DNA of 33,936 bases from Fibrobacterales bacterium. GTDB taxonomy: Bacteria > Fibrobacterota > Fibrobacteria > Fibrobacterales > CADBQJ01. The stretch's first letter is position 1. Every line of letters starts with the position of its first letter. The notes below the pieces were generated by a model. The model had not been told where the DNA came from and ran no database searches. It worked only from the letters and a program-made list of their open reading frames with translations. Shown here one piece after another: positions 23,799-28,935 of the stretch. The DNA is taken from positions 1 through 33,936 of the forward strand of contig JAGCEZ010000014.1 of the NCBI GenBank assembly GCA_017650365.1, read 5' to 3'. The translations under genes were made by a program, and so were the position numbers.

Positions 23799-24293
23799 AT
23801 GGGCGCGATTCCCGAAAATGACCCCGCTTTCCTGCTGAAGGAAAACGTCCGCATCCTGCTCACCACCCTCCACGCGCTCCAGAAGAAGGTGGTCGGCTTC
23901 TCCTGGCGCAAGCTCTTCCCCTTCAACCTCTACTTCCGCGCGGTGGACTTCCCCGCCTACGCCCGGTTCCTGGAGGAGATCTCCGCGAAGATCGCCGAAC
24001 AGCGGAAGATCTGCCTGGAGCACCCGGTCCGCGGGGAATCCGCGCCGCACCGGGAGTTCTTCGACGCGATGGAGGGGTATCTCCGGCCGCTCGGGGATTC
24101 CGCGGACGAGCTCCGCGAGGTGGCGCTTCTCATGCGCGAAAGCGCCCCGCTGAAGGAGATCAACGCCCGGCTGGACCGCTACCAGGAGTGCTGCGCCCGC
24201 TACCACGACAAGGCGCTCGGTCTGGCCCAGTCCTGGACCGCCCTCGTGCAGTCGTTCAAGGGCCCGGAGGGCGGGGATGGGAGAAATGGCTAA
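23799..24293 (+). CDS. Helical hypothetical protein
   Basis: A 164-residue soluble protein, mostly helical by composition: long runs such as FLEEISAKIAEQRKICLE and NARLDRYQECCARYHDK with heptad-like spacing, no signal peptide and no membrane segment. GAGGA lies five bases before the ATG. I recognise no domain. Its TAA stop (24291-24293) falls inside the exact 17-base repeat AATGGCTAATTTTCGCC, and the compositional island begins just after it. It may therefore be the last ordinary chromosomal gene before the insertion. Confidence 0.7.
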   Translation: MGAIPENDPAFLLKENVRILLTTLHALQKKVVGFSWRKLFPFNLYFRAVDFPAYARFLEEISAKIAEQRKICLEHPVRGESAPHREFFDAMEGYLRPLGDSADELREVALLMRESAPLKEINARLDRYQECCARYHDKALGLAQSWTALVQSFKGPEGGDGRNG

Positions 24294-24301
24294 TTTTCGC
24301 C
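24285..24301 (+). repeat. Second copy of the 17-base promoter-like repeat at the island edge
   Basis: AATGGCTAATTTTCGCC matches 17780-17796 exactly. In the first copy it is directly followed by CATG and a gene start. Here it is followed by AAATCC and less GC-rich sequence without a start codon. Either the stop of the preceding gene overlaps an orphan promoter, or the gene it once served was displaced by the island. Confidence 0.5.
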
Positions 24302-24355
24302 AAATCCAGTCCCCAAAGCCAGGAATTTTTACAAAATCCAGAAAATCACGGCATT

Positions 24356-24410
24356 CGTAAACATTGGCAATATGTCATAGATAGCTCATTCTGCCAATAA
24401 CGTGTTTACG
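24356..24410. promoter_or_regulatory. Interrupted inverted repeat upstream of the XRE/ImmA regulator
   Basis: Left part CGTAAACA-TTGGCA (24356-24369) is mirrored by TGCCAA-TAACG-TGTTTACG (24392-24410), so an 8-bp and a 6-bp arm pair with a 5-base offset. It lies 32 bases before the regulator's start codon, with a TATTCT hexamer at 24425-24430 between them. This is the expected position for an autoregulatory operator of the XRE-type protein downstream. Function inferred. Confidence 0.45.
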
Positions 24411-24442
24411 GAAATGCTCCAGGATATTCTAGATTTCCAAGC

Positions 24443-25528
24443 ATGAACCTGACCCCATCGGTTTTCAAGACCCGGCTGAAATGTGCCCGTGTGATGCGAG
24501 GATTCTCCATGGGCGAGCTATGCGACAGAATCGGCAACGCCGTTTCCAAGATGACCATCTCCAAATACGAGAGCGGCGCGATGGTTCCGGGCGAAGAGAC
24601 GTTGAAACTCCTGGCGGAGGCGCTTGAACAACCCCTGGAGTTCTTCTCCCGTCCGCTCTCCGTTCGCATCAACGACTTGAAGTTCCGCAAGCAGTGCCGA
24701 CTCCGCGTCAAGGAGACGAACGCGATCCAGGCGAAAGTCGTCGATCATCTCGAGCGGTATCTCTACATCGAAGAAGTCTGCGGAAATCCCCCTAGCCATC
24801 CTCATGCCAAGCGCAAGACGGTCTCGTCGGCAAACGACGTAATTCAAACTGCGGCAGACCTGCGAAAAGAGTGGAACATCGGCGGCGAAGGCATCCCCAA
24901 CGTCATCGCGCTTCTTGAATCTCGCGGCTTCCGCATCGTCGAGGTGGATGCGCCGCCGACCTTCGACGGAATGAACGCCGTCGCCAATGACGCCATCGAC
25001 GTCATCGTTCTGAACAGGAACTTTCCCGCGGAGCGCAAGCGACTGACTGCACTCCACGAATGCGCCCACGCCTTGCTGCGTTTTGCCGAAGGAATCGATT
25101 CCAAAACGGAAGAATCGTATTGCAACCTCTTCGCGAGCGAAATGCTGATTTCGGAAGAGCAGCTCCGCGATGCGTTGGGCACCTCTAGAAAGCAGATATC
25201 CTGGAGGGAGATGGTCGACCTGCAGCAACGCTACGGCATCTCCTACGACGCGCTGATGTACAAGGCGCACAAATGCGGCATCATCAACGACCAGAACTAC
25301 AAATGGTTCAACATCCACAAAAGCAAAGAGCCCAGCTACAAGGCTTTTGTGGAGCATAGCCGATACCGCGGTTTCGAATCGTCGGGTCGATTCGAAAAAC
25401 TGGTCTACAAAGCCGTGTACTGCGACCTGATCGACTACGAACAGGCAACCGATCTTCTAGGCTATTCGCCCAAGGAGTTTCCCGGCAGCGAACGTTCCAA
25501 CAACAGCAACCAAGGAGGTTGGATGTAG
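24443..25528 (+). CDS. XRE-family HTH / ImmA-IrrE metalloprotease regulator
   Basis: A 361-residue two-domain protein. Residues 8-65 are a helix-turn-helix of the XRE/Cro type (FKTRLKCARVMRGFSMGELC, then SKMTISKYESGAMVPGEETL). Residues 150-245 are an ImmA/IrrE zinc peptidase with HECAHALL (205-212; HExxH ligands His205, Glu206, His209) and EESYCNLFASEMLIS, which supplies the third ligand. About 110 further residues follow. Such fusions (COG2856) control mobile elements and stress or toxin modules: the HTH half represses and the protease half relieves repression by cleavage. It is the first gene of the island, less GC-rich than its neighbours, with inverted repeats upstream and a long structured gap downstream. 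No integrase or excisionase is present. Confidence 0.92.
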   Translation: MNLTPSVFKTRLKCARVMRGFSMGELCDRIGNAVSKMTISKYESGAMVPGEETLKLLAEALEQPLEFFSRPLSVRINDLKFRKQCRLRVKETNAIQAKVVDHLERYLYIEEVCGNPPSHPHAKRKTVSSANDVIQTAADLRKEWNIGGEGIPNVIALLESRGFRIVEVDAPPTFDGMNAVANDAIDVIVLNRNFPAERKRLTALHECAHALLRFAEGIDSKTEESYCNLFASEMLISEEQLRDALGTSRKQISWREMVDLQQRYGISYDALMYKAHKCGIINDQNYKWFNIHKSKEPSYKAFVEHSRYRGFESSGRFEKLVYKAVYCDLIDYEQATDLLGYSPKEFPGSERSNNSNQGGWM

Positions 25529-25561
25529 GCAAGACGAGGATAGACGACATCGGGGAATAAA

Positions 25562-25595
25562 AAGCCCCGGAACTACCGAGAATAGTCCCGAGGCT
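25562..25595 (-). terminator. Possible minus-strand intrinsic terminator inside the island gap
   Basis: The 25563-25595 hairpin (12-base arms, two mismatches, 9-base loop) is followed on the minus strand by a five-T run including the stem end, then ATTCCCC. No minus-strand protein gene upstream is convincing, so what it terminates is unclear; a small RNA from about 25800 is one option. It could also limit antisense read-through into the XRE/ImmA gene. Confidence 0.4.
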
Positions 25596-25758
25596 GCCCG
25601 AGGATCTCTATTGAGACCCTAATGAAGGCCCAATCAAAATAGAATCTTCGGGCTTCCCCTCACATACCTCCGCGCGTTGAAAAGCGAAATCCGATTTTCA
25701 CGCTGTCGGAGAATTGCCCCAAATCGCGTTTCGAACGTATTCCGAGACGCAAATGGAC

Positions 25759-25780
25759 TGAATTTGCGCAAGCAAATTCA
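25759..25780 (+). promoter_or_regulatory. Nine-bp perfect hairpin with GCAA tetraloop before DUF4417 gene
   Basis: TGAATTTGC, GCAA, GCAAATTCA form a perfect 9-bp stem closed by a GNRA-type loop. It ends 33 bases before ATG 25814, and the presumed ribosome-binding site (GAGGGAG) lies between. The regular shape suggests an RNA element or a palindromic protein site rather than a terminator, because no T-run follows. Confidence 0.4.
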
Positions 25781-25813
25781 CAACCGCCTTCGAAAAAGCG
25801 AGGGAGAAGCAGA

Positions 25814-26563
25814 ATGAAAACCATGACCACAGAAACGAGGATGCGGAAGCTCCAGCTTCTGTACCTCAAGTACACCAACAAGGCGGGCTACGCCGGAGCC
25901 TGGGATTTGCCGAAGATGCATTGCAGCACGGACGTCTATCCGGACTACATCGCGCTCTTCGGCCAGCCGTCGGATTACCGGCGAACTTCGAAGACCGCGG
26001 TCGCGTTCTTCCAGTATGACGACGTGTTCGACGGCCAGCACGGGCTCTACAACGCCATCTACTACGGCAACAGGAAAGACCTCCGCACGTTCAAAAAACG
26101 CTTCAAGGGTGTCCGCTTCGCAATCGCGCCGGACTGTTCGCTCTGCGGCGACGTTGACAAAGCGGAGATTCTGATTCGAATCAAGCGTTCCAGGGTCGTG
26201 GCCATCTGGATGACGATTGAACTCGGCATCTGCGTGATTCCGCTGGTCTCGTTTCCCCGTGCCGCCGATCTGGACGACATATTGGCCGGATTGGAAAACT
26301 GCGAAGTCGTCGCGTTCAGCACGAAAGGCTTCGTCAAGGATTCGGAAGAACGCGCAAACCTGATTGAAGGCGTCAAGCGGACCGTAGATCGGCTCAATCT
26401 AAAGGCCATCGTCGTGTACGACGTGTGCAAAACAGACAAGGACGCGCTGGAAATCTTCGATTACGCCGTCAAGAAAGGCATCCAGATCGTCGTCCCGAAC
26501 AACATCCTGAAGGAGCGGAACAGGCAAACGAAAACAATCAACAAAGGAGTGCGACATGCATAA
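25814..26563 (+). CDS. DUF4417-family protein
   Basis: A 249-residue protein starting at ATG 25814 after a GAGGGAG ribosome-binding site. It matches DUF4417 in order: FDGQHGLYNAIYYGNR (72-87), FKGVRFAIAPDCSLCGDVDKA (97-117; the family has a PDFSLYxDMP-type motif), ICVIPLVSF (139-147; family VIPTV), CEVVAFSTKGFVKDSEE and LNLKAIVVYDVCK. The family occurs on phages and other mobile elements and has no established activity. The stop lies eight bases inside the EndoU gene, so the two are translationally coupled. A phosphoesterase or nucleic-acid-related role would be a guess. Confidence 0.8.
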   Translation: MKTMTTETRMRKLQLLYLKYTNKAGYAGAWDLPKMHCSTDVYPDYIALFGQPSDYRRTSKTAVAFFQYDDVFDGQHGLYNAIYYGNRKDLRTFKKRFKGVRFAIAPDCSLCGDVDKAEILIRIKRSRVVAIWMTIELGICVIPLVSFPRAADLDDILAGLENCEVVAFSTKGFVKDSEERANLIEGVKRTVDRLNLKAIVVYDVCKTDKDALEIFDYAVKKGIQIVVPNNILKERNRQTKTINKGVRHA

Positions 26564-27104
26564 ATCGGATGCCGGCCTCGGCCACGGCACCTCGGGATCG
26601 CCGCAAGGCGCGCTCGAAGAGCTAGAATACGAGGCGAAGACAAAACAGATTGAAGAGGAACTCCGGAAGGAGTTTCCGCAACAGGAGTCGAAGGAGGCCG
26701 CGCTGGCGAACCTGCAACGCACGGAACGATTCGCCGACGGGGCCATAAAGCATATATTTAACGGAGAGATCAACCCCAAAGGCAAAGCCGTCGGCTACCA
26801 CTACGAAGGTCTCGCAGGAACCGATGGCCGAGTCGTACCAGGAACAAAATCCGCCGAAGACTCCACGGGAGTCTATCGCGCAAAAGTCGAGGTGAACGGC
26901 ATAAGGAAGAAAATTCCTTCGACGTTCTTTCCAAAAAGCTGGTCACCTCAGCAAATCGTGGACACGATCAACGCCGCATATGACAAACGCGCCCCTTTGC
27001 AAAACGGCCTCTACTCGGCGACCGCCAACGGCATCACGATACAAATGCGGTTGGACCCGAGTGGAAAGATTGTGACCGCCTACCCGCGTATGATGGAGGG
27101 ATAG
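26556..27104 (+). CDS. EndoU-type RNase toxin
   Basis: A 182-residue protein with AAAGGAG before its ATG. The first ~55 residues are charged and helical. From about 60 to the end it matches the bacterial EndoU domain: AIKHIFNGEINPKGKAVGYH (63-82), with His66 and His82 as the likely catalytic pair, then GVYRAKVEVNG, STFFPKSWSPQQIVDTINAA (122-141), and GITIQMRLDPSGKIVTAYP (159-177). Bacterial EndoU domains are RNA-cutting C-terminal toxins of contact-dependent and polymorphic toxins, usually on a large secreted carrier. Here the domain stands alone, without signal peptide or delivery domain. It lies between DUF4417 and a putative immunity gene starting one base after its stop. An intracellular toxin of a mobile element, or an orphan carried for exchange, are the main options. 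Confidence 0.82.
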   Translation: MHKSDAGLGHGTSGSPQGALEELEYEAKTKQIEEELRKEFPQQESKEAALANLQRTERFADGAIKHIFNGEINPKGKAVGYHYEGLAGTDGRVVPGTKSAEDSTGVYRAKVEVNGIRKKIPSTFFPKSWSPQQIVDTINAAYDKRAPLQNGLYSATANGITIQMRLDPSGKIVTAYPRMMEG

Positions 27105-27105
27105 C

Positions 27106-27507
27106 ATGAAGTACGCAGTTAGACCTTTCGTCAACGAAGGCAAAACCGAAGAGATTCTTTTCGACTTCATTCCTCCGAACGAGGTTCTGTCGTGCTTTTT
27201 GGTCGCCGATTTCGGATTTTCCCCCGAAACCTATATAGCCGCCATCAACGCCGTCCTCGACGGAAAATCGGAAAAAGAGGATTTGGACGGAAATGACACG
27301 AATGTCGTCTTCGGGCCAGAAAAGACCACAATTGAGTCTCTGTGGACGGAGGAACAAGGCGCTCCGGCTCCATGCGTCGTGAACACGCGAGAACTTCGCC
27401 AAGTGATGGACGAGTGGCTTTCGTATCACAATCGAATCATGGCCGAACGCACGCACAAGCCGCAAGACGGCGGCCCTGCCGCAGAGGGGAAAGGAGAAAC
27501 ACGATGA
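27106..27507 (+). CDS. Putative EndoU immunity protein
   Basis: A 133-residue acidic soluble protein with GGAGGG ahead of its ATG, beginning one base after the toxin's stop codon. It has no signal peptide. It resembles the 120-residue protein at 27713: INAVLDGKSEKEDLDGND aligns with IDRVLSGKEKEIESFGNE, and VVNTRELRQVMDEWL with AVDTKVLRGLIDEFV. Each of the two follows directly after an EndoU sequence, which points to an immunity role. Immunity-protein families are highly diverse and I cannot name one. The stop overlaps the next start (ATGA). Confidence 0.7.
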   Translation: MKYAVRPFVNEGKTEEILFDFIPPNEVLSCFLVADFGFSPETYIAAINAVLDGKSEKEDLDGNDTNVVFGPEKTTIESLWTEEQGAPAPCVVNTRELRQVMDEWLSYHNRIMAERTHKPQDGGPAAEGKGETR

Positions 27508-27716
27508 AAGAGAACGGATTCAGAACGTTCTTCCCGAAGAACTGGTCGCGGCAGCAGGTGGTCGACGCGATCAACGAGGCCTACGACAGCAAGGTGCGGC
27601 AGCCCGGTTCGAAGAACGTCTTCGTGGGAAGGACCGCAGCCGGGATGCTGATCAAACTCCGCCTCGACGCGAAGGAGATGATCACGACAGCCTTTCCGAT
27701 GACGGAGGAAGCATGA
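27504..27716 (+). CDS. Displaced C-terminal half of an EndoU toxin
   Basis: The start is ATG 27504, with AAGGAGA six bases upstream; earlier in-frame starts lie inside the immunity gene. The 70-residue product, FRTFFPKNWSRQQVVDAINE then GMLIKLRLDAKEMITTAFPM, corresponds to about residues 120-178 of the full toxin at 26556. It lacks the part with both catalytic histidines and should be inactive. Its own start, ribosome-binding site and ATGA overlaps keep it translatable in the string. It is visibly more GC-rich than the full toxin. I interpret it as the stub of an older toxin left when a new toxin/immunity pair was inserted. A structural or decoy role is possible. Confidence 0.72.
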   Translation: MKENGFRTFFPKNWSRQQVVDAINEAYDSKVRQPGSKNVFVGRTAAGMLIKLRLDAKEMITTAFPMTEEA

Positions 27717-28075
27717 ACCACAAGGTCGAAACCATGGACGTCGGCGGCAAGCGGCTGATGTGCTTCGTCTTCGAGGAAGGCAACGGGGTCCTGGACGCGT
27801 TCTTCAACGGCGACGTCCGCGAGTTCCACGACGGAATCGCGGAGCAGATCGACCGCGTCCTCTCCGGAAAGGAGAAGGAGATCGAGTCCTTCGGGAACGA
27901 ATGCGGATGGCTCGTCCGCAGCGACCTGTACACCATCGTGGACAACTACGCGCTCGACGAAAAGAGGAACTGGTTCGCCGTGGACACGAAGGTCCTTCGA
28001 GGCCTGATCGACGAATTCGTCGAAAAGAACGCCGAATTCCGTCGGGCGGAGAAGCCGAGAGACGCGAACGGCTAG
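27713..28075 (+). CDS. Second immunity-like protein (orphan immunity)
   Basis: A 120-residue acidic soluble protein preceded by GGAGG. Its ATG overlaps the stop of the EndoU stub by four bases. It contains GIAEQIDRVLSGKEKEIESF, FGNECGWLVRSDLYTIVDNY and WFAVDTKVLRGLIDEFVEKN, similar in order to the 133-residue protein at 27106. It follows a toxin stub in the same way that its relative follows the full toxin. Its base composition resembles the surrounding chromosome, so it may be the older, resident member. The stop codon overlaps that of the convergent diguanylate cyclase (CTAG). Confidence 0.7.
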   Translation: MNHKVETMDVGGKRLMCFVFEEGNGVLDAFFNGDVREFHDGIAEQIDRVLSGKEKEIESFGNECGWLVRSDLYTIVDNYALDEKRNWFAVDTKVLRGLIDEFVEKNAEFRRAEKPRDANG

Positions 28076-28935
28076 GTCCGCGCCTCGCCGCCGCGCACGG
28101 CGGGGACCACTCGGTTGCGCCCGCCTTCCTTGGCCTTGTAGAGCGCGTCGTCGGCGCGCTGGATGAAGTCGTCGATCGTCTCGGTGTCGACGTCGTAGGA
28201 GGCCACGCCCATCGAGATGGTGTAGTGGATCGTCTGGTAGTCCACCTTGAGCTCGCTCGCCTCGATGCCCGCGCGGATCCGCTCGGCGAACCGGACGGTC
28301 TGGTCGAGCGTGGTCTGCGGCGTGAGGACGACGAACTCCTCCCCGCCCCAGCGCCCGACGGTGTCGTAGGGGCGGCACTCGTGCTCGAGGAAGCGCGAGA
28401 GCTGGCAGATCACCTCGTCGCCGGCCCCGTGGCCGTAGGTGTCGTTGACGCGCTTGAAGTGGTCGATGTCGATGAAGACCAGGCCGGCGGTGCCGTTGCC
28501 GCGCCCGGTGCGGCGCACGCGGTCGAGCTCGCTTTCGAGCGCGCCGATGAAGCTGCGGCGGTTGCAGAGACCCGAGAGCGGGTCGGTCTCGGCCGTGGCC
28601 TCGAGTTCGCGGATCTTCTGGTCGCGCTTGAGGAACTGCCGCCCGAACGTGATGCCCAGCGACCCGAACCAGCTCGTCATCGCCAGCGTGACGGCCGCAA
28701 CGACGAGGAAGAAGACGGGGTGGAGCGCCATCGAGACCAGGTCGCCGAACGTGCTCGGCTCGGCCTTGACCCAGGCGATCAGCGCCAGCACGACCATCGA
28801 GAAGGCGAGCCCGACGAAGAGCCCGAGCAGCGCGAAGAAGTTGCCGAAGAGGTCGAACGACGCGCGCGAGAGGAAGCCGCTCCGCTTGTGCAGGATCGGC
28901 TTCAGGATCTCGTTCACTTCCATTCGTATGGCCAT
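28072..28935 (-). CDS. Membrane-bound diguanylate cyclase (GGDEF)
   Basis: It makes cyclic di-GMP from two GTP at the inner membrane. I start it at ATG 28935 (MAIRMEVNEI), with GGAG five bases upstream; a TTG start eight codons earlier is possible. Of 287 residues, two membrane helices lie at about 33-55 and 71-95. The GGDEF domain runs from DPLSGLCNRRSF (118-129) through FIDIDHFKRVNDTYGHGAGD (154-173) to the active-site GGEEF (197-201). The inhibitory I-site RxxD (Arg188-Asp191) is intact five residues before it, so product inhibition is expected. No sensory domain beyond the short periplasmic loop is seen. It ends against the island by a shared CTAG. Confidence 0.95.
   Translation of the reverse strand: MAIRMEVNEILKPILHKRSGFLSRASFDLFGNFFALLGLFVGLAFSMVVLALIAWVKAEPSTFGDLVSMALHPVFFLVVAAVTLAMTSWFGSLGITFGRQFLKRDQKIRELEATAETDPLSGLCNRRSFIGALESELDRVRRTGRGNGTAGLVFIDIDHFKRVNDTYGHGAGDEVICQLSRFLEHECRPYDTVGRWGGEEFVVLTPQTTLDQTVRFAERIRAGIEASELKVDYQTIHYTISMGVASYDVDTETIDDFIQRADDALYKAKEGGRNRVVPAVRGGEART

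What the first reader, a model, noticed from the sequence alone, without database searches (positions are those of the whole stretch)
25529..25813. Highly structured 285-base gap with a minus-facing terminator and competing hairpins
Three inverted repeats and an alternative CGGGG/CCCCG pairing lie between the regulator and the EndoU operon. The first hairpin has a T-run only when read on the minus strand, which would make sense for a minus-strand small RNA ending near 25560. Alternatively it is a switching leader on the plus strand. Neither type is recognised from known families.
Basis: seen in the sequence. Interest (0 to 1): 0.62.

Follow-up and report, generated by a model that had tools for sequence, protein, structure and literature searches.

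The report
Small RNA beside toxin operons
The gap holds one copy of a previously undescribed small-RNA gene, about 74 bases long and read away from the toxin genes, which recurs with matching structure in front of toxin-and-immunity operons in 19 of 168 Fibrobacterota genomes and probably helps control them.

Summary
A covariance model built from the gap and three relatives, then rebuilt from 18 sequences, finds 25 copies in 19 of 168 Fibrobacterota genomes. Every copy lies divergently in front of an effector operon: 21 with DUF4417-toxin-immunity genes, 4 with HExxH-type genes. Rfam has no match.

Shared anatomy on the minus strand is a sigma-70-type promoter (-35 signal peaking at 17-18 nt from an extended -10 TGCTATNTT), a short leader, a small hairpin (usually GNRA-capped) and an intrinsic terminator, giving 67-86 nt. 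Covariation is strong: 76 double-change cells against 24 in shuffles, 0/500. The terminator has 22 G-U pairs read on the minus strand and 1 on the plus strand, so that hairpin is selected as minus-strand RNA. The CGGGG/CCCCG switch is not conserved.

Best mechanism (inferred): a cis-antisense counter-transcript acting on the operon leader, as plasmid pMV158 RNAII does between copG and repB. Unexplained: the untranscribed promoter region is complementary, locus by locus, to the small-hairpin region. The window copy is diverged, with a weak -35 and no GNRA loop. No transcript was observed.

The parts
25557..25630 (-). predicted small RNA, about 74 nt (start near 25629-25630, end in the T-run)
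   Evidence: R1 82 bits and R2 50.9 bits; folds to -38.1 kcal/mol as two stacked hairpins; z -6.5 for a 73-nt version; transcript ends inferred from the promoter and terminator
25636..25641 (-). -10 box TATTTT of the small RNA promoter, within CTATTTT
   Evidence: CTANNTT box present in all 18 aligned homologues; columns 28-30 and 33-34 of A8 nearly invariant
25659..25664 (-). expected place of the -35 box (TGTGAG), weak in this copy
   Evidence: homologues carry TTGACN-like hexamers at 17-18 nt spacing; the window matches only 1-3 of 6
25601..25620 (-). stem-loop 1 (AGGGTCTC-AATA-GAGATCCT); GNRA-capped in most homologues, not in this copy
25563..25595 (-). intrinsic terminator hairpin, 15 pairs
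   Evidence: 22 G-U on minus against 1 on plus over 19 loci; 11 of 13 pairs covary
25556..25562 (-). T-run of the terminator (TTTTATT)
25596..25612 (.). dyad arm D, in the transcribed stem-loop 1 region (GCCCGAGGATCTCTATT on plus)
25638..25653 (.). dyad arm U, in the untranscribed promoter region (AATAGAATCTTCGGGC on plus), complementary to arm D
25668..25711 (+). plus-strand leader hairpin (CTCCG...CGGAG)
   Evidence: a leader hairpin at this place is general: mean z -1.7 over 23 loci
25759..25780 (.). palindrome TGAATTTGC-GCAA-GCAAATTCA upstream of DUF4417; conservation not shown
24443..25528 (+). HTH_3 + Peptidase_M78 regulator, RmrA-like (RosmerTA antitoxin type)
   Evidence: Pfam; PADLOC RmrA 2e-40; spr1629 antitoxin model below cut-off
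25814..26563 (+). DUF4417 protein, first gene of the effector operon
   Evidence: Pfam 1.7e-20; relatives 55-61% identical
26556..27104 (+). EndoU_bacteria toxin
   Evidence: Pfam 1.3e-24
27106..27507 (+). putative immunity protein
   Evidence: position after the toxin and homology to the same gene in L034, L036, L037; no Pfam family

Best explanation
The gap carries a minus-strand small RNA gene: its own promoter, about 74 nt of RNA folded as stem-loop 1 plus an intrinsic terminator, ending next to the 3' end of the regulator gene. It belongs to a family found in front of effector (mostly DUF4417-toxin-immunity) operons of Fibrobacterota. I propose that it acts as a cis-encoded antisense counter-transcript: any plus-sense mRNA that crosses the gap to reach the toxin operon carries the full complement of the RNA in its leader, close to the first ribosome site, and pairing changes leader folding, translation or stability so that toxin expression stays low. 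Supported by computation: conserved promoter, terminator, structure, strand and location. Inferred: that the RNA is made, that plus transcripts cross the gap, and the direction of the effect.
For: The element is present before 25 effector operons with different toxins and different regulators. TTGACA similarity peaks at exactly 17-18 nt from the -10 box (means 2.8 and 2.6 of 6; other offsets 0.95-2.1) and most -10 boxes are extended (TGC). Structure: 87.1% of cells paired against 69.2% in shuffles, 76 double-change cells against 24, 0/500. Terminator wobble pairs fall 22 to 1 on the minus strand. The predicted RNA folds with mean z -4.9 in 23 of 23 loci. Its 3' end lies within about 4 nt of the upstream regulator's stop codon in several loci. 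pMV158 RNAII works in this layout: a countertranscript in the copG-repB intergenic region with a 5' tail and terminator hairpin, inhibiting repB translation (PMC4485353). No locus-specific complementarity to the start sites of operon genes was found, so a trans target inside the operon is not favoured.
Against: No transcript was observed. In L177/L181, L168 and L183 the HTH-M78 gene lies on the same strand as the RNA and 71-226 nt beyond it, so read-through from the regulator is impossible there and another plus promoter would be needed. No plus-strand promoter was identified. Complementarity between promoter region and stem-loop 1 is not predicted by simple antisense action. The window copy has a weak -35 and has lost the GNRA loop, so it may be decaying. 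The start-site test cannot see a generic seed against ribosome sites, because those sites resemble each other.
Confidence: 0.5

Rival explanations
1. Regulatory DNA: the conserved thing is a divergent promoter with a long dyad (arms at the -10/spacer and around +20 to +40) bound by a protein; the short RNA is a by-product, or its terminator shields the regulator gene from divergent transcription.
For: Locus-specific complementarity of the two arms: mean score 10.2 against 6.8 +/- 0.4 when arms are re-paired between loci, none of 20000 permutations as high. Mismatches in the dyad show no RNA-strand bias (23 against 33).
Against: Stem-loop 1 keeps a GNRA tetraloop with covarying closing pairs and the terminator has a 22:1 minus-strand wobble bias, both RNA-level signals. 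Arm sequences do not visibly follow the type of HTH regulator.
Confidence: 0.2
2. A trans-acting or protein-binding small RNA: it binds a protein of the island or a distant mRNA, for example through the C-rich 5' leader (CCU...GCC) or the GNRA hairpin.
For: Conserved leader composition and GNRA loop beyond what a pure cis-antisense RNA needs.
Against: No locus-specific complementarity to the first three gene starts. DUF4417 is missing next to 4 of 25 elements, so it is not an obligatory partner. Toxins vary and have protein immunity genes.
Confidence: 0.2
3. Single-stranded-DNA promoter or folded recombination site (as Frpo in F plasmids, or integron attC): the dyad works as a folded single strand during transfer of the island.
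For: A promoter core sits inside one arm of an imperfect palindrome and mismatches show no RNA-strand bias. The cassettes are clearly horizontally mobile.
Against: No conjugation genes were recognised in the island, the terminator is RNA-selected, and the window copy is chromosomal. The precedent comes from a paper title and abstract only (PMC9849209).
Confidence: 0.03
4. An ordinary intergenic terminator plus chance hairpins, nothing specific.
For: Intrinsic terminators are common, and terminator-like sites in the surrounding 3.2 kb are no more frequent than in shuffles.
Against: R2 finds 25 hits in 168 genomes, every one before an effector operon, with a conserved promoter and a second hairpin.
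Confidence: 0.03

Closest known systems
pMV158 antisense RNAII (copG-repB), PMC4485353
   Same: Small countertranscript encoded in the gap between a repressor gene and the gene it protects against over-expression; leader plus terminator hairpin; complementary to the region just upstream of the translation start
   Different: 48 nt with one hairpin on a rolling-circle plasmid; here 67-86 nt with two hairpins, a promoter/stem-loop dyad, and chromosomal or prophage toxin cassettes; function here untested
Plasmid copy-control antisense RNAs with attenuation (pT181, pIP501 RNAIII, R1 CopA)
   Same: Structure conserved while sequence varies; the target is a leader of the opposite strand (own knowledge)
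   Different: No replication gene, and no attenuator shown in most loci; L188 and L220 have a T-run after the leader hairpin
RosmerTA (RmrA/RmrT) toxin-antitoxin
   Same: The window regulator matches RmrA profiles
   Different: No RmrT partner in the window; related HTH-M78 loci pair with a PIN-like gene; the small RNA is not part of described RosmerTA as far as I know
Type III toxin-antitoxin (ToxIN)
   Same: Structured RNA next to an RNase-type toxin
   Different: RNA is divergent, not upstream on the same strand; no repeats; a protein immunity gene is present; toxin type is variable

Membership tests
Any Rfam family | score at or above gathering, or E at most 1 | tested here: not met
   no match
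Independent intergenic small RNA gene | own promoter | tested here: met
   -35/-10 signal at 17-18 nt over 19 loci; weak -35 in the window copy
Independent intergenic small RNA gene | intrinsic terminator on the RNA strand | tested here: met
Independent intergenic small RNA gene | RNA detected | not testable with these tools
   no expression data available
cis-antisense counter-transcript (pMV158 RNAII type) | encoded opposite the leader of the controlled gene | tested here: inconclusive
   position fits in all 25 loci, but no plus transcript crossing the gap was shown, and three loci lack a same-direction upstream regulator
cis-antisense counter-transcript (pMV158 RNAII type) | inhibits the target in trans | not testable with these tools
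   needs experiment
Type III toxin-antitoxin RNA | tandem RNA repeats upstream of and co-oriented with the toxin gene | tested here: not met
   RNA divergent, no tandem repeats
RosmerTA | RmrA antitoxin gene | tested here: met
   PADLOC 2e-40
RosmerTA | adjacent RmrT toxin gene | tested here: inconclusive
   the operon genes tested next to the regulator match no PADLOC model

The most novel reading that the evidence does not exclude
A new small-RNA family of Fibrobacterota tied to polymorphic-toxin/effector operons whatever the toxin, whose promoter core forms one arm of a covarying palindrome with its own stem-loop 1, meaning either a dual DNA/RNA switch at the operon leader or an RNA that recognises its own promoter region.
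Probability: 0.3. Interest if true: 0.75.

Novelty: new variant of a known kind. Interest (0 to 1): 0.56.

Why it matters
Polymorphic toxin operons are usually discussed in terms of toxin and protein immunity; how their expression is restrained is little known. A small RNA that stays with the operons while toxins and regulators are swapped would be a common control layer, would give a search handle for new effectors (it already points to uncharacterised HExxH-type genes), and would be, as far as I found, an undescribed RNA family in a phylum with little RNA work.

Tried and rejected
CGGGG/CCCCG switch: not conserved. Known RNA families: none at gathering or at E up to 1. Nucleotide search for the gap in 61 near relatives: only the window itself. 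The element as part of the HTH-M78 regulator: most HTH-M78 homologues carry a PIN-like gene and no element. The element as partner of DUF4417 only: 4 of 25 copies have no DUF4417, and many DUF4417 loci have no element. Small peptide: no consistent reading frame in the RNA. Anti-ribosome-site pairing within the operon: no own-versus-permuted signal. Direct plus-strand use of the dyad arm as a second promoter: the matching -10 lacks its last T in nearly all loci (by eye). Spread outside the phylum: 296 Spirochaetota genomes gave one marginal hit, as expected by chance; viral contigs gave one clear copy, the prophage already seen in G018.

Full report
Setting. The window is contig C28 of a 2.08 Mb Fibrobacterota genome; the phylum is inferred from named relatives of the regulator, mostly Fibrobacter MAGs. 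Composition falls from 65-74% G+C to 53-58% between about 24 and 28 kb, where an island holds an HTH_3 + Peptidase_M78 gene, the gap, a DUF4417 gene, an EndoU toxin, a putative immunity gene, and a second truncated EndoU with a second immunity-like gene. The regulator matches RmrA (RosmerTA antitoxin) profiles.

Observation. The gap folds better than all shuffles on both strands. CGGGG/CCCCG is present but not conserved.

Finding relatives. The gap itself is too diverged for nucleotide search. Its DUF4417 neighbour has close relatives in G142, G120, G018 and G013. In the first three the gap before DUF4417 has the same layout although the gene upstream differs: separate HTH and M78 genes in G142 and G120, an unrelated gene in G018. 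Folding the four gaps on the minus strand gives one picture, a small hairpin directly followed by a strong terminator. The plus strand of the same stretches is weaker because G-U pairs become A-C.

Unbiased test. A covariance model from the four sequences (R1) was run over 168 genomes of the phylum with no reference to genes. Its new strong hits (G027, G151, G054, G019; 36-71 bits) all lay next to DUF4417-like genes of other subfamilies with other toxins and immunity genes. Fetching 60 regions, nearly all DUF4417 loci, and rescanning gave more copies. Alignment A8 of 18 copies gave model R2. R2 over the phylum: 25 hits at E up to 0.01 in 19 genomes. Of these, 17 stand directly before DUF4417, 4 before toxin-immunity-DUF4417, and 4 before genes with HEISH/HELSH/HEYKH motifs followed by secreted-protein-like genes, without DUF4417 directly behind the element. 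Toxins behind the element include EndoU and Ntox50. DUF4417 occurs at only about 66 places in these genomes, so this association is not chance.

Anatomy. Anchored on the -10 box, similarity to TTGACA peaks at spacers of 17 and 18 nt and nowhere else; most -10 boxes are preceded by TG. The predicted RNA is 67-86 nt and folds with mean z -4.9, all 23 loci below -1. Stem-loop 1 is usually AUA-GNRA-UAU (GUGA, GAAA, GCAA, GCGA) with covarying closing pairs. Over both helices 87.1% of cells pair against 69.2% in shuffles, and 76 cells have changes on both sides against 24 (0/500); sliding the partner by one to three columns destroys this. Scored with a strand-neutral scheme, terminator stems have 22 G-U pairs read on the minus strand and 1 read on the plus strand. 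The RNA is therefore selected as minus-strand RNA.

Unexplained feature. The region between the -35 and the end of the -10 is complementary to the stem-loop 1 region of the same locus. Own pairs score 10.2 on average, against 6.8 +/- 0.4 after permuting loci (none of 20000 as high). Column counts agree: 24 double-change cells against 10.9, 0/500. The best case is L188, where 17 of 19 aligned columns pair with one bulge. Because the first arm lies upstream of the predicted start, the pairing can exist only in plus-sense RNA or in DNA; mismatch types show no significant strand bias (23 against 33). I do not know its role.

Mechanism. The layout matches pMV158: repressor gene, countertranscript in the gap, controlled gene (PMC4485353). 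Relatives also have a hairpin on the plus strand just before the first ribosome site (mean z -1.7 against -0.43 in controls). The small RNA's 3' end abuts the regulator's stop codon in several loci, with no plus-strand terminator seen between them by eye. I therefore favour cis-antisense control of the operon leader (0.5). Against it, in three loci the regulator is on the RNA's own strand, so read-through from it cannot supply the target there. Rivals are a DNA operator with by-product RNA, and a trans- or protein-binding RNA; the start-site test does not support an operon target in trans but cannot see a generic seed.

The window copy. It scores 50.9 bits with R2. It keeps CTATTTT, the terminator and the dyad (16-17 nt arms at 25596-25612 and 25638-25653), but has a poor -35 and a rebuilt stem-loop 1 without a GNRA loop. 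It may be partly decayed after transfer into a G+C-rich host.

Novelty. No Rfam match. Literature searches found no description, within an open-access library only. In 296 Spirochaetota genomes there was one marginal hit. I file it as a new small-RNA family that probably works like known cis-antisense RNAs; membership of that class is not shown.

Noticed in passing
window 27504-28075: A second, truncated EndoU domain (70 aa) and a second immunity-like gene, paralogous to the first, follow the operon: an orphan toxin-immunity remnant.
   Followed up: partly
window 24000-28100: Island of 53-58% G+C inside a 65-74% G+C region; DUF4417 relatives are about 60% identical in other Fibrobacterales genomes, pointing to horizontal transfer.
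   Followed up: partly
L051 2245-3920: In a viral contig the same cassette as in G018 has a transposase-like gene (438 aa) inserted between the small RNA element and DUF4417; the G018 copy (L201) is uninterrupted.
   Followed up: partly
L201 4036-4722, L222, L224, L225: Uncharacterised HEISH/HELSH/HEYKH-motif proteins followed by secreted-protein-like genes stand directly behind the same small RNA element; no Pfam family for the two tested. Candidate new effector-immunity pairs.
   Followed up: partly
L182, L184, L185, L186, L201: HTH-M78 regulators related to the window's are coupled to a PIN-like gene (about 170 aa) whose stop codon lies close to the small RNA terminator.
   Followed up: partly
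L177 2518-3024: DUF4417 gene carries an in-frame TGA while its small RNA element is intact and identical to that of L181 over the printed stretch.
   Followed up: no
G013 (L154, L167, L172, L178, L179, L186, L189, L197, L035): One genome holds about eleven DUF4417 matches, most without the small RNA element found nearby.
   Followed up: no
window 25759-25780: Near-perfect palindrome TGAATTTGC-GCAA-GCAAATTCA just before the DUF4417 ribosome site; no clear counterpart was established in the relatives.
   Followed up: no
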